A stretch of DNA of 64,000 nucleotides from an uncultured bacterium (GTDB taxonomy: Bacteria; Cyanobacteriota; Vampirovibrionia; Gastranaerophilales; Gastranaerophilaceae). The notes beneath the pieces were generated by a model. It saw nothing but the letters and a program-made list of their open reading frames with translations. It was not told where the DNA came from and made no database searches. Made by a program: the position numbers and the translations under genes. This document shows positions 47,011 through 49,844 of this stretch, in pieces. The DNA lies in the NCBI GenBank assembly GCA_949297715.1, contig CASFTJ010000007.1, positions 124,001 to 188,000 of the forward strand, written 5' to 3'. Positions within the stretch are counted from its first letter, which is position 1. Each line of letters begins with the position of its first letter.

Positions 47011-47232
47011 TTAAAGCTCTGAAACGTCGAATAATTGGTCAAATTTGACATTTAAGGCTTTCATTAATCTAAGCAAGGTCGTAAATTTAAAATCAGCTTT
47101 ACCATTTTCGATTTTGCTGATTTGCTGCATTTGCAAACCCGCTTTTGCGGCAAGCTCTTCTTGTGAAAGCTTTTTGCGGTGCCTTTCAGCGCACAAATTT
47201 GTACCAAATGTAATAAGGCTCTCTTTATCCAT
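47011..47232 (-). CDS. Xre-family HTH regulator (73 aa)
   Basis: A single Cro/C1-type domain: GTNLCAERHRKKLSQEELAA, then KAGLQMQQISKIENGKADFK and LLRLMKALNVKFDQLFDVSEL. It is paralogous to the next gene (both end KFxQLFDVSxL). No ribosome site is seen; AATATACAC lies close before the ATG. It is only 6 bases from the end of the convergent DciA-like gene. Confidence 0.92.
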   Translation of the reverse strand: MDKESLITFGTNLCAERHRKKLSQEELAAKAGLQMQQISKIENGKADFKFTTLLRLMKALNVKFDQLFDVSEL

Positions 47233-47346
47233 AAGTGTATATTATTCTATTGACATACATAATTCTATATGCTATAGATATAAATATATACTCTATAGAC
47301 GAAATTTTTATTGTGTTGAACTCTGAAAATTTAAATATTTTTGCAG

Positions 47347-47571
47347 CTACAACTTAGAAACATCAAACAGTTGTTCAAATTTGAGATCCAAAGCTTTTAA
47401 AATCGGTACTAATGTTGAAACTCGTACATCAATTTGACCGTTTTCGATTTTGGAAATGTGCTGTCTTTGAAGGTCTGACATTTCTGCAAGCTCCTCTTGT
47501 GAAAGGTTACGGCGGTTTCTCTCTGCTCTTAAGTTGTTCCCGATTTGTATGTTGATTTCTTTATTTTTCAT
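47347..47571 (-). CDS. Xre-family HTH regulator, tandem paralogue (74 aa)
   Basis: A single Cro/C1-type domain: IGNNLRAERNRRNLSQEELA, EMSDLQRQHISKIENGQIDV, LKALDLKFEQLFDVSKL. About half its residues match the 73-residue neighbour, which is consistent with tandem duplication. Its upstream region holds an inverted repeat, CTTTATGC/GCATAAAG, that also fronts the divergent 85-aa gene; autoregulation is likely. AAAGG is very close to the ATG. Confidence 0.92.
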   Translation of the reverse strand: MKNKEINIQIGNNLRAERNRRNLSQEELAEMSDLQRQHISKIENGQIDVRVSTLVPILKALDLKFEQLFDVSKL

Positions 47572-47573
47572 AC

Positions 47574-47627
47574 CTTTATGCTATTGTATTGACAATTTTA
47601 TTTCTAGATATAATAATAGGCATAAAG
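47574..47627. promoter_or_regulatory. Inverted repeat CTTTATGC ... GCATAAAG, probable Xre operator pair
   Basis: CTTTATGC (47574-47581) and GCATAAAG (47620-47627) are perfect 8-base arms 38 bases apart, in the intergenic region between the Xre gene and the divergent 85-aa gene. The distance and AT-rich middle suit two half-operators around divergent promoters. Confidence 0.45.
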
Positions 47628-47668
47628 AATATTATTATATGCAAAATGTATTGAATAGGTGAAATTTT

Positions 47669-47926
47669 ATGCCAGACGTTAATCTTGAAAAACTTAAAAA
47701 GATAAGTTGTGATCTAAAATCTTTGTGCCAACTTGTTTTTATTTTGAACACTTATCTAAATGCAAATCAGGATTACAGTGAAGAATGCTCAAATGCTTTA
47801 ATTCTTTCGGAAATTGTTTTTGCGGAATTGGAAAAAACGCACGACAATTTGTTTTATTATCTTCAGGATATTTATATGGAAATTAATTCAAGAGAGAAGA
47901 TTGAAAAAACAGGAGATTTGATTTGA
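47669..47926 (+). CDS. Small helical protein of unknown function (85 aa)
   Basis: An acidic, predominantly helical protein (LEKLKKISCDLKSLCQLVFI; ILSEIVFAELEKTHDNLFYY) with three cysteines. The layout resembles small antitoxin-like or phage accessory proteins, but no family is recognised. It diverges from the Xre gene and shares its operator region; AGGTGA precedes the ATG. Confidence 0.6.
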   Translation: MPDVNLEKLKKISCDLKSLCQLVFILNTYLNANQDYSEECSNALILSEIVFAELEKTHDNLFYYLQDIYMEINSREKIEKTGDLI

Positions 47927-47954: not shown

Positions 47955-49178
47955 TTAATAAGCTGGCAGGCTTCTCCAATAGCCTCTGACTTCGGTTCCG
48001 TCACTGCGTGTGTATGGTCTTACGTAAACCGATCCGCCTCCAAAAATGGAGGAAGCTTCAAGTTCATTACCTGTTGGAATTCCGATGCTTTTTAGCTGTT
48101 CCATAATTGCAGATTCATTTGCCGAGTATTCATCCCCCGACATTGCGCCAATATCTTCTCGTGAGAAAATTCTATTGTCGCCGGTAATCGGGTTAGTGAA
48201 GTTTGCAAAATTCTTTATCTGCTGTCCGATTAACCCTGCCTGAAGCTGTTTCATAATAGCGCTTTCATTCGCTCTGAAAACATCAGAATCCATCTGAGCG
48301 ATTTCCTCCGGAGTGAAGATATGATTACCATATTTATCAACATTCATATCAACACTACCTTCAAGTAAAAATGACGGTTGTTCATTCTCTTGAAGATTTT
48401 GTAATGTTTGCAACGGAATTATTGTTGAAATAGGATTAAAATTTTTGGAAATATCATTTATGATTGATTTATTAGCCGCAAGTGCGAAGATAGAATTATC
48501 TCCTTTTTCCGACGAAAGTTTTGGAGCGGGGGGTGAAAACACTGACTGTGTTGCAGTTGATTTGTTTAAATTTTGTAAAATTTTAAGAATATCCGGTGGA
48601 ACAGGGTTGAAATTTTTGGAAATATCATTTATAATATTATTGGATCTCGGTTCAAGCGCTTGGTTGTGGTGCAAGTATGCAGAACTGGGGTCCACTTCTT
48701 TTATCTGATAAAAATTATTTCCCGTTTTATTTGCATTGTTTCTTATTACATACTCATAGTTTTTTCCTTTATAAGTGTTGTATAATTTGTAGAAATTATT
48801 TGCATCTTCTCTCCAAGGTTTATCATTACTGTATTTTAGTCCATGTGCGGTTCTAATTTGTTCTGGTATTTTCGGGACCATTTTTATATTATGGGGTCTT
48901 ATTTCACCAGCTTGTCCACCTGAAAAATTTATTTTCCCAAGTTGTGGTGATATGATATCACGCCCTTGTAAGTAATCCCAATAATAGTTTTTCCCTCGTT
49001 TTACAAGATTTTTAATTTGAGCTTGCGAAAGTTCGTTTAAAGGTTTTGAGTTTTCCAGTAATTTTGCCCGCACGGCTTTTTCCAGATAGGCGCTGGCACC
49101 GCCAGCGAAACTTCCAGTAAGAAGTCCGATTAATGCATCCTGTAATCCTGTAATCAAAGGATTTTTATCCTCAATCAT
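47955..49178 (-). CDS. Repeat-containing large protein, C-terminal part after a frameshift (407 aa)
   Basis: The ATG at 49178 has no ribosome site, and the frame stays open upstream, continuing the 99-aa gene at 49211 (SGLASGGVFGTGRG lies before MIEDKNPLITGLQDALIGLL). Internal repeats are NDISKNFNP twice, and IF-x-x-E-[ED]-I...ANESAIM-x-QL twice. The end YVRPYTRSDGTEVRGYWRS is an R-x-D-G-T type motif found on phage- or secretion-linked proteins. The Gly-rich segment and DALIGLLTGSFAGG suggest a structural or polymorphic-toxin-like protein. Function unknown. Confidence 0.65.
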   Translation of the reverse strand: MIEDKNPLITGLQDALIGLLTGSFAGGASAYLEKAVRAKLLENSKPLNELSQAQIKNLVKRGKNYYWDYLQGRDIISPQLGKINFSGGQAGEIRPHNIKMVPKIPEQIRTAHGLKYSNDKPWREDANNFYKLYNTYKGKNYEYVIRNNANKTGNNFYQIKEVDPSSAYLHHNQALEPRSNNIINDISKNFNPVPPDILKILQNLNKSTATQSVFSPPAPKLSSEKGDNSIFALAANKSIINDISKNFNPISTIIPLQTLQNLQENEQPSFLLEGSVDMNVDKYGNHIFTPEEIAQMDSDVFRANESAIMKQLQAGLIGQQIKNFANFTNPITGDNRIFSREDIGAMSGDEYSANESAIMEQLKSIGIPTGNELEASSIFGGGSVYVRPYTRSDGTEVRGYWRSLPAY

Positions 49179-49210
49179 TCCTCTGCCTGTGCCAAATACT
49201 CCACCTGATG

Positions 49211-49510
49211 CTAAGCCTGAAGCTGTTCCTGACCTATTTCCTGTGATAATTTTCTGCCTATTGATTTTTGAAGTAGTTTTTGCCCTGCTATTCCTCCGGC
49301 TTTGCCCGCACCCGCAAAAGGTAACGCAGCACTTCCAATTTCAAGTAGCCCTCCTGTCCAAATTTTAATTAGATAATTTCTTAAATCTTCTTCAAGTTTT
49401 TTGTTGTAATTGTTGTAGATAAAGTTAATAATTTCTGCTTTTTGATTTTTTGTTAAATTGTTATCTTTTAAAATAATTTCTACATAATTGTTTGATTCTG
49501 TTTTTTTCAT
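49211..49510 (-). CDS. N-terminal part of the frameshifted repeat protein (99 aa)
   Basis: It starts with a real ribosome site (AAAGGACA) and encodes a helical Asn/Lys-rich N-terminus and then a Gly/Ala-rich stretch (GSAALPFAGAGKAGGIAGQK). At the A-run 49250-49253 (plus-strand TTTT) the natural continuation moves to another frame, where it reads KIITGNRSGTASGLASGG into the 407-aa part. One extra A would restore a protein of about 520 residues. As sequenced, it ends after 99 residues with an unrelated tail. Confidence 0.6.
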   Translation of the reverse strand: MKKTESNNYVEIILKDNNLTKNQKAEIINFIYNNYNKKLEEDLRNYLIKIWTGGLLEIGSAALPFAGAGKAGGIAGQKLLQKSIGRKLSQEIGQEQLQA

Positions 49511-49645
49511 ATAATTTGTCCTTTTTTTGTTAATTTAAATATAAGGACAACATTTGCTATTTATTAAAGGCGCATTCTTATTATACTATTTGTGTAGCAA
49601 TTCTGTCAATTCGTTTTTTTATTTTTTTTAATATCAGTATTTGTT

Positions 49646-49666
49646 GGTGCGTCAAAACGACACACC
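49646..49666. repeat. GGTGCGTC hairpin repeat, copy 5
   Basis: GGTGCGTC-AAAAC-GACACACC with one mismatch. It lies between the frameshifted repeat protein and a decayed duplicate of part of that gene. The rest of 49511-49712 is AT-rich with nothing recognised. Confidence 0.7.
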
Positions 49667-49712
49667 CTGCTGGTTTTTAAAAGATTTTGTAATATTTTTG
49701 CGGAATTATAAT

Positions 49713-49844
49713 TGGAACAGGGTTGAAATTTTCGGAAATATCATTTATAATATTATTGGGTTCTATTTCGAGCGCTGGGGCTTGGTCCCAGTATGCAGGA
49801 GTAGAACCTACTTCTTTTATCTGATAAAAATTATTTCCCGTTTT
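49713..49844 (-). pseudogene. Decayed duplicate of a piece of the 407-aa repeat protein gene
   Basis: The minus strand here closely matches 48597-48730 inside the repeat protein gene. It encodes TGNNFYQIKEV, a diverged middle (PAYWDQAPALE for SAYLHHNQALE) and NNIINDISENFNPVP. There is no start, the frame stops soon, and hydF begins directly after. It is a remnant of a tandem paralogue or of a duplication. Confidence 0.8.

What the first reader, a model, noticed from the sequence alone, without database searches (positions are those of the whole stretch)
47955..49844. Frameshifted repeat protein with a decayed copy of its middle part
Seen: a gene of about 520 codons broken at an A run (49250-49253), with internal repeats (NDISKNFNP; IFxxEDI...ANESAIMxQL), an RSDGTEVRGYWRS-like end and, 0.2 kb upstream, a remnant matching 48597-48730. 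Repeats at two scales and pseudogenised pieces are typical of toxin-like or phage-derived loci with recombining modules.
Basis: partly seen in the sequence, partly recalled or inferred. Interest (0 to 1): 0.5.

Follow-up and report, generated by a model that had tools for sequence, protein, structure and literature searches.

The report
Toxin carrying a phage-scaffold tag
The broken gene is one of a large family of bacterial toxin-like proteins in gut Gastranaerophilales that all carry the short tail by which a phage scaffolding protein is thought to hold the capsid, which suggests that a domesticated phage head is loaded with a changing set of toxins.

Summary
The frame change is near 49211-49250, not at the A run. 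Intact copies exist in relatives.

The reading 'toxin-like, phage-derived, modular' is supported, with the polarity reversed. The C-terminus is constant and the N-terminal/middle part varies: LPD3, PBECR1, lipase-like, DUF6973, GH108 or a domain also found on a MuF phage-head protein. The constant module contains one or two copies of a ~32-aa motif that is the extreme C-terminus of the scaffolding protein of a phage-head gene cluster in the same genome. Annotated scaffolds of free phages (D6E, AP45) end the same way. The cluster is single-copy, collinear in 62 of 62 named loci, chromosomal and largely vertically inherited (GTA-like). Tagged toxin genes sit inside it in 12 of 62. Small membrane-protein genes, probably immunity genes, flank 33 of 59 tagged genes versus 24 of 288 controls. 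The proposed 85-aa immunity gene is not supported.

Best reading: head-packaged polymorphic toxins using a scaffold-derived capsid tag. Packaging and delivery are inferred, not shown. The window copy is probably dead or a sequencing error.

The parts
49211..49510 (-). N-terminal ORF (99 aa) of the broken gene: helical start and beginning of a glycine/alanine-rich region
   Evidence: one ORF with the main part in relatives
47955..49178 (-). main ORF (407 aa) of the broken gene: rest of the Gly-rich region, LPD3 domain, linker repeats, constant module
49211..49250 (-). stretch in which the reading frame changes between the two ORFs
   Evidence: comparison with the intact G001 copy
48708..49016 (-). 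LPD3 domain (PF18798), the presumed toxin/effector domain
   Evidence: Pfam E 2.6e-6, 28.1 bits against a cut-off of 27; 2.7e-12 in paralogue L039
48414..48635 (-). linker repeats (NDISKNFNP), two units, start-to-start 171 bp
   Evidence: one unit fewer in G001
48237..48326 (-). first copy of the scaffold-type capsid motif (M1)
   Evidence: profile match at G000:C7:172237-172326
47958..48179 (-). second copy of the motif (M2) followed by the constant tail YVRPYTRSDGTEVRGYWRS
   Evidence: profile A1 match E 1.9e-43; alignment; matched by an effector-only profile that also finds 79 of 79 scaffolds
49681..49844 (-). decayed remnant: end of an LPD3-type domain plus linker of an older copy; also present in G001
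47669..47926 (+).

Best explanation
The gene is a frame-broken member of a family of polymorphic toxins of Candidatus Gastranaerophilales. Each protein joins an exchangeable toxic domain to a constant module made of one or two copies of the capsid-binding C-terminal motif of a phage scaffolding protein plus a short conserved tail. By that motif the toxin is taken, like scaffold, into the procapsid of a phage-derived head that the host encodes in a conserved, vertically inherited cluster. The particle then brings it to another cell. Types thought to act in the cell envelope (lipase-like, DUF6973, DxYDF domain) are paired with small membrane proteins that probably give immunity. Nuclease-like types (LPD3, PBECR1) carry a glycine-rich region that may carry them across a membrane. 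Shown here by sequence: modular family, motif identity with scaffolds, conserved head cluster, linkage, and membrane-gene pairing. Inferred: capsid binding, packaging, delivery, toxicity, immunity. The window copy is probably inactive unless the frame change is an assembly error.
For: (1) A profile built only from effector motifs finds 79 of 79 scaffolds of the named head clusters (E 7.5e-18 to 5.2e-11) among 3829 ORFs, plus the ORF just before the capsid gene in two free phages (HTVC115P gp71 5.1e-8, MaAM05 2.7e-7). The other 18 ORFs at E <= 0.05 are the window gene and 17 ORFs that, where I read them, are tagged effectors or lipase-type homologues. (2) Annotated head scaffolding proteins of phages D6E and AP45 end in the same motif, Javan262 more weakly, phiSASD1 not. 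(3) The motif is the most conserved part of 45 aligned scaffolds: 9 of 14 invariant columns lie in the last 32 residues; it is modelled as three short helices with pLDDT about 80-90. (4) Exchangeable domains: LPD3, PBECR1, lipase-like, DUF6973, GH108. (5) One toxin domain is fused to the scaffold module in this genome and to Phage_Mu_F in G117, with E 1.4e-18 and 1.4e-21. (6) Tagged ORFs lie inside the head operon, on its strand, in 12 of 62 named loci that reach from capsid to terminase gene; the cluster is collinear in 62 of 62. G163 has an array of four beside its capsid gene. (7) Co-occurrence of capsid gene and tagged proteins over 241 genomes: 97 both, 54 capsid only, 16 tag only, 74 neither. 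(8) A small membrane-protein ORF is adjacent to 33 of 59 tagged ORFs against 24 of 288 controls; lipase-like 9 of 9.
Against: No experiment shows packaging. Of 115 genomes with a strong capsid match, 27 have no tagged effector at E<=1e-10. Genus g6 lacks this capsid but has tagged effectors beside the genes of an unrelated capsid (PF05065), and no scaffold with the motif was seen there; the tail, not the motif, may matter there. Only 2 of 8 Gly-rich nuclease-type genes have a membrane-gene neighbour, and the window gene has none. The effector structure model is poor (pLDDT 41), so the BECR fold is untested. Related genomes are not independent, so the co-occurrence p-value is too small.
Confidence: 0.62

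Rival explanations
1. The tagged toxins are cargo of ordinary temperate phages or phage satellites (as MuF toxins are), and the conserved cluster is only a relic that shares the scaffold motif.
For: MuF toxins are exclusively in temperate phages and prophages (PMC5576092, passages). In g6 the tagged genes sit beside an unrelated, siphovirus-like gene set. The motif is common to scaffolds of free phages with this capsid type.
Against: A scan of viral contigs found only five places, all fragments of the same cluster; one shows its chromosomal flank secA-rpsP-ZIP. The window-type effector has no match in 50,697 phage records. The cluster is collinear in 62 of 62 loci and its distances follow those of flanking host genes (Mantel r 0.29-0.64, controls 0.55-0.58).
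Confidence: 0.2
2. The scaffold motif is bait or sensor: the proteins bind capsid proteins of invading phages and poison assembly or trigger self-killing (anti-phage defence), rather than being packaged.
For: A capsid-binding tag joined to toxic domains would suit a capsid sensor (inference). Many copies lie outside the head cluster, with decayed copies as in defence loci.
Against: Tagged genes are collinear parts of the host's own head operon. Peptidoglycan hydrolases and lipases with membrane immunity candidates make little sense for an intracellular sensor. Toxin domain shared with a MuF head protein. PADLOC was not searched.
Confidence: 0.12
3. The locus is just a decaying repeat protein with no special role.
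For: The window copy is frame-broken and a remnant lies upstream.
Against: Intact relatives, one intact paralogue in the same genome (L039, 555 aa), and 157 of 241 order genomes with the module (this count includes weak scaffold matches).
Confidence: 0.05

Closest known systems
MuF polymorphic toxins of temperate phages (PMC5576092)
   Same: Phage-head-associated constant domain joined to interchangeable toxin domains, with small neighbouring immunity ORFs; one toxin domain here is shared with a PF04233 protein in G117.
   Different: No MuF domain in the window protein; the constant module is scaffold-derived and often C-terminal; genes lie in host chromosomes and in a conserved head cluster.
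Polyvalent proteins / phage-packaged effectors, including T4 Alt (PMC5512222)
   Same: LPD3 and PBECR1 domains; proteins thought to be packed in the head and injected.
   Different: Small one-toxin proteins with a short scaffold-type tag, scattered over a host chromosome with immunity-like genes.
Gene transfer agents
   Same: Phage structural genes as a conserved, vertically inherited chromosomal cluster without integrase or replication genes in the stretch read (L043).
   Different: DNA packaging not tested; linked toxin cargo is not something I found described.
Scaffolding proteins of phages with this capsid type (phrog_267; D6E, AP45)
   Same: Same position and pattern of the C-terminal motif.
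   Different: Effectors replace the scaffold body with toxin domains and add a tail motif.

Membership tests
Polymorphic toxins (general) | constant trafficking module joined to exchangeable toxin domains | tested here: met
Polymorphic toxins (general) | adjacent immunity gene | tested here: inconclusive
   33 of 59 tagged ORFs against 24 of 288 controls have a small membrane-protein neighbour; none beside the window gene; immunity function not tested
MuF polymorphic toxins | MuF domain (PF04233) | tested here: not met
   no PF04233 in the window protein; present only in the G117 protein
MuF polymorphic toxins | encoded in temperate phages/prophages | tested here: not met
   window gene lies between HydF and ordinary host genes; no phage match
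Polyvalent proteins | LPD-type domain | tested here: met
   PF18798, 28.1 bits against 27
Polyvalent proteins | several disparate enzyme domains in one large protein on phage or conjugative element | tested here: not met
   one recognised domain, chromosomal
Gene transfer agent (for the head cluster) | conserved, vertically inherited phage structural cluster | tested here: met
Gene transfer agent (for the head cluster) | packages host DNA and transfers it | not testable with these tools
   needs particles
Capsid-binding by scaffold C-terminus | same C-terminal motif as scaffolds of this capsid type | tested here: met
Capsid-binding by scaffold C-terminus | physical binding to the major capsid protein | not testable with these tools
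   no complex prediction available

The most novel reading that the evidence does not exclude
A whole order of gut bacteria keeps a domesticated, gene-transfer-agent-like phage head and loads it with a rotating arsenal of toxins by a portable tag copied from the scaffold's own C-terminus, so that the particle works as a free-swimming toxin delivery device encoded half in the head operon and half in scattered cassettes.
Probability: 0.42. Interest if true: 0.88.

Novelty: new variant of a known kind. Interest (0 to 1): 0.73.

Why it matters
If right, it gives a simple sequence rule (a scaffold tail on a non-scaffold protein) for finding proteins that phage heads or gene transfer agents carry. 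It would add toxin delivery to what a domesticated head can do, and offers a weapon system for an uncultured, widespread gut lineage. Whether the tag loads a protein into this capsid type can be tested directly with a harmless reporter.

Tried and rejected
Rejected: A-run as break point. The 85-aa gene as immunity. phrog_6561 toxin-C-subunit match (E 0.033) and other weak family matches, taken as chance. The idea that IMG/VR holds free viruses with the tag: the five hits are fragments of the same cluster.

Led nowhere: structure model of the intact effector (pLDDT 41), so the LPD3/BECR fold was not compared with solved structures. The fold search of the scaffold in viral models gave no usable match, nor did its profile against solved structures. 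A likeness of the DxYDF domain to colicin M is only recalled; Pfam gave nothing. Papers: ten searches; none described this system (listings only, apart from passages of two papers).

Rows dropped: tagged ORFs under 150 aa, those with under 700 bases of flank, and duplicates by first 60 residues; membrane segments were counted by a simple hydropathy rule.

Full report
WHAT IS THERE. The genome (2.02 Mb, 34 contigs; window = contig C7, 124001-188000) belongs to Candidatus Gastranaerophilales: most of the named genomes whose capsid protein matches its own bear that name or that of related Melainabacteria/Cyanobacteria MAGs; a few carry other or no lineage names. At 47955-49510 on the minus strand two ORFs (99 and 407 aa) make one broken gene. 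A congener (G001) has it as one 461-aa ORF. The frame changes between 49211 and the A run, not in the run; G001 also has one in-frame 171-bp linker unit fewer. The remnant 49713-49844 is 84% identical to 48597-48728, i.e. the end of the LPD3 domain and the linker, and is present in G001 too.

THE FAMILY. The middle of the protein matches LPD3 (PF18798, 28.1 bits against a cut-off of 27). Its last ~85 residues recur in many proteins of this genome and its relatives whose other parts differ: LPD3 (L039; L048, a close homologue), PBECR1 (L055, L057), lipase-like (L045, L046, L056, L199, L165), DUF6973 (L048, L199, L117, L206), GH108 (L159). Several of the lipase matches are below Pfam's cut-off. 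In contigs C22 and C24 of this genome the module is N-terminal, the variable domain C-terminal, and membrane-protein genes follow the effector, in C24 as two full tandem copies of 152 aa. At the window's own locus, beside HydF, G000 and G001 have the LPD3 type, G010 a lipase type with an LPD3-linker remnant, and G003 no effector. So cassettes are exchanged there.

THE TAG IS A SCAFFOLD TAIL. The module's motif also forms the very C-terminus of a 239-aa protein lying between portal and capsid genes in a compact head cluster of the same genome: terminases (PF04466, PF03592), SU10-type portal (PF23899), capsid (PF25209, phrog_267), virion protein and amidase. A profile made from effector motifs alone found 79 of 79 such scaffolds in the named loci among 3829 ORFs. 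Of the 20 other matches at E <= 0.05, one is the window gene, two are the ORFs before the capsid gene in phages HTVC115P and MaAM05, and 17 lie in the named loci and are, where read, tagged effectors or lipase-type homologues. Annotated scaffolds of D6E and AP45 end in the motif, Javan262 weakly, phiSASD1 not. In 45 aligned scaffolds 9 of 14 invariant columns fall in the last 32 residues, modelled as three short helices with pLDDT of about 80-90. That such a tail binds the coat is recalled from other phages, not shown here.

THE CLUSTER. The capsid gene was found in 139 of 241 genomes of the order, one match in nearly all of them. Of 80 named loci, 62 reach from capsid to large-terminase gene; all 62 keep the same order and strand. 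Distances of cluster genes correlate with those of flanking host genes (Mantel r 0.29-0.64; two host-host controls 0.55 and 0.58), with MCP against zip270 lowest at 0.29. No integrase or replication gene was seen in the 18-kb stretch read (L043). I therefore call it GTA-like; DNA transfer is untested.

LINKAGE. Tagged ORFs lie inside the cluster on its strand in 12 of 62 loci, mostly between portal and terminase genes. In all 80 loci an earlier scan listed 12 tagged ORFs, against 2.2 expected from genome-wide numbers. G163 has four tagged genes in a row beside its capsid gene, and G040 of another family has one separated from its capsid gene by two genes. Over 241 genomes, capsid and tag (E<=1e-10): 97 both, 54 capsid only, 16 tag only, 74 neither; the genomes are related, so the p-value of 1e-12 is too small. 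Eleven of the 16 are genus g6; in the g6 stretches I read, tagged genes sit beside genes of an unrelated capsid type (PF05065): its portal, tail or terminase genes. That is the chief result against a motif-capsid match in every lineage.

TOXICITY AND IMMUNITY. Small ORFs with two or more predicted membrane segments lie within 250 bases of 33 of 59 tagged ORFs but of only 24 of 288 other ORFs in the same loci. By type: lipase-like 9 of 9, DUF6973-like 13 of 20, DxYDF-like 2 of 2, Gly-rich nuclease-type 2 of 8, GH108-like 1 of 4, other 6 of 16 (the types there were set by short sequence patterns). The DxYDF domain of C22/C24 is also fused to Phage_Mu_F in G117 (E 1.4e-18 and 1.4e-21), and the membrane proteins are related (best 2e-4). 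MuF proteins are the known phage-borne polymorphic toxins (PMC5576092, passages). LPD and PBECR domains belong to polyvalent proteins held to be packed in heads and injected (PMC5512222, passages).

MECHANISM. Most likely: during head assembly the tag puts the toxin inside the procapsid in place of some scaffold; it leaves with the DNA at infection; envelope-acting domains work in the periplasm; LPD3/PBECR1 types may use their Gly-rich region to cross a membrane. Steps shown: motif identity, modularity, linkage, pairing. Steps inferred: binding, packaging, delivery, killing.

VERDICT. The window gene is probably a dead or mis-assembled member, but it leads to a scaffold-tagged polymorphic toxin family tied to a domesticated head cluster. 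I found no description of it in the searches; the library lacks most subscription journals and bioRxiv preprints.

Noticed in passing
L043 3919-13237 (G000:C1) and L089-L168: Single-copy, collinear phage-head operon led by a LuxR-type HTH gene and an amidase gene, with a GNAT gene inside, flanked by secA, rpsP, ZIP transporter and FliI-like ATPase genes in many of the loci: a GTA-like element of Gastranaerophilales.
   Followed up: yes
A1 columns 50-71; window 47967-48032: Constant tail YVxxYTRSDGTxVxGYxRS after the motif; some effectors end instead in WVTINGNHVLIKD (L131, L130, L139, L144). The role of both tails is unexplained.
   Followed up: partly
L042 199-1136 (G000:C24): Two full tandem copies (79% identical) of a 152-aa four-segment membrane protein directly downstream of a tagged effector, and a third partial one at the contig end: an immunity-gene array.
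   Followed up: partly
L039 11394-11864, L048 12671-13198, L056 8111-8647, L057 12426-12944, L040 13015-13506: A ~172-aa exported protein (AFGTNKKLDFAKDE type) recurs beside tagged effectors; no Pfam match for the two tested.
   Followed up: partly
L199 and L200 (G163): In genus g9 several tagged effectors end in the same foreign read-through (GRAESSECERARNIKQSAEVEGEACNGMQGLR), as if one repeat element had inserted in the second motif of each.
   Followed up: no
L205-L211 (genus g6): A second, siphovirus-like structural gene set with PF05065 capsid; tagged effectors and a MuF-type toxin lie beside such genes.
   Followed up: partly
window 47011-47926: Two tandem Cro/C1-type HTH genes and the 85-aa gene form a block that comes and goes at the HydF locus; relatives of the 85-aa gene sit beside HTH genes elsewhere.
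   Followed up: partly
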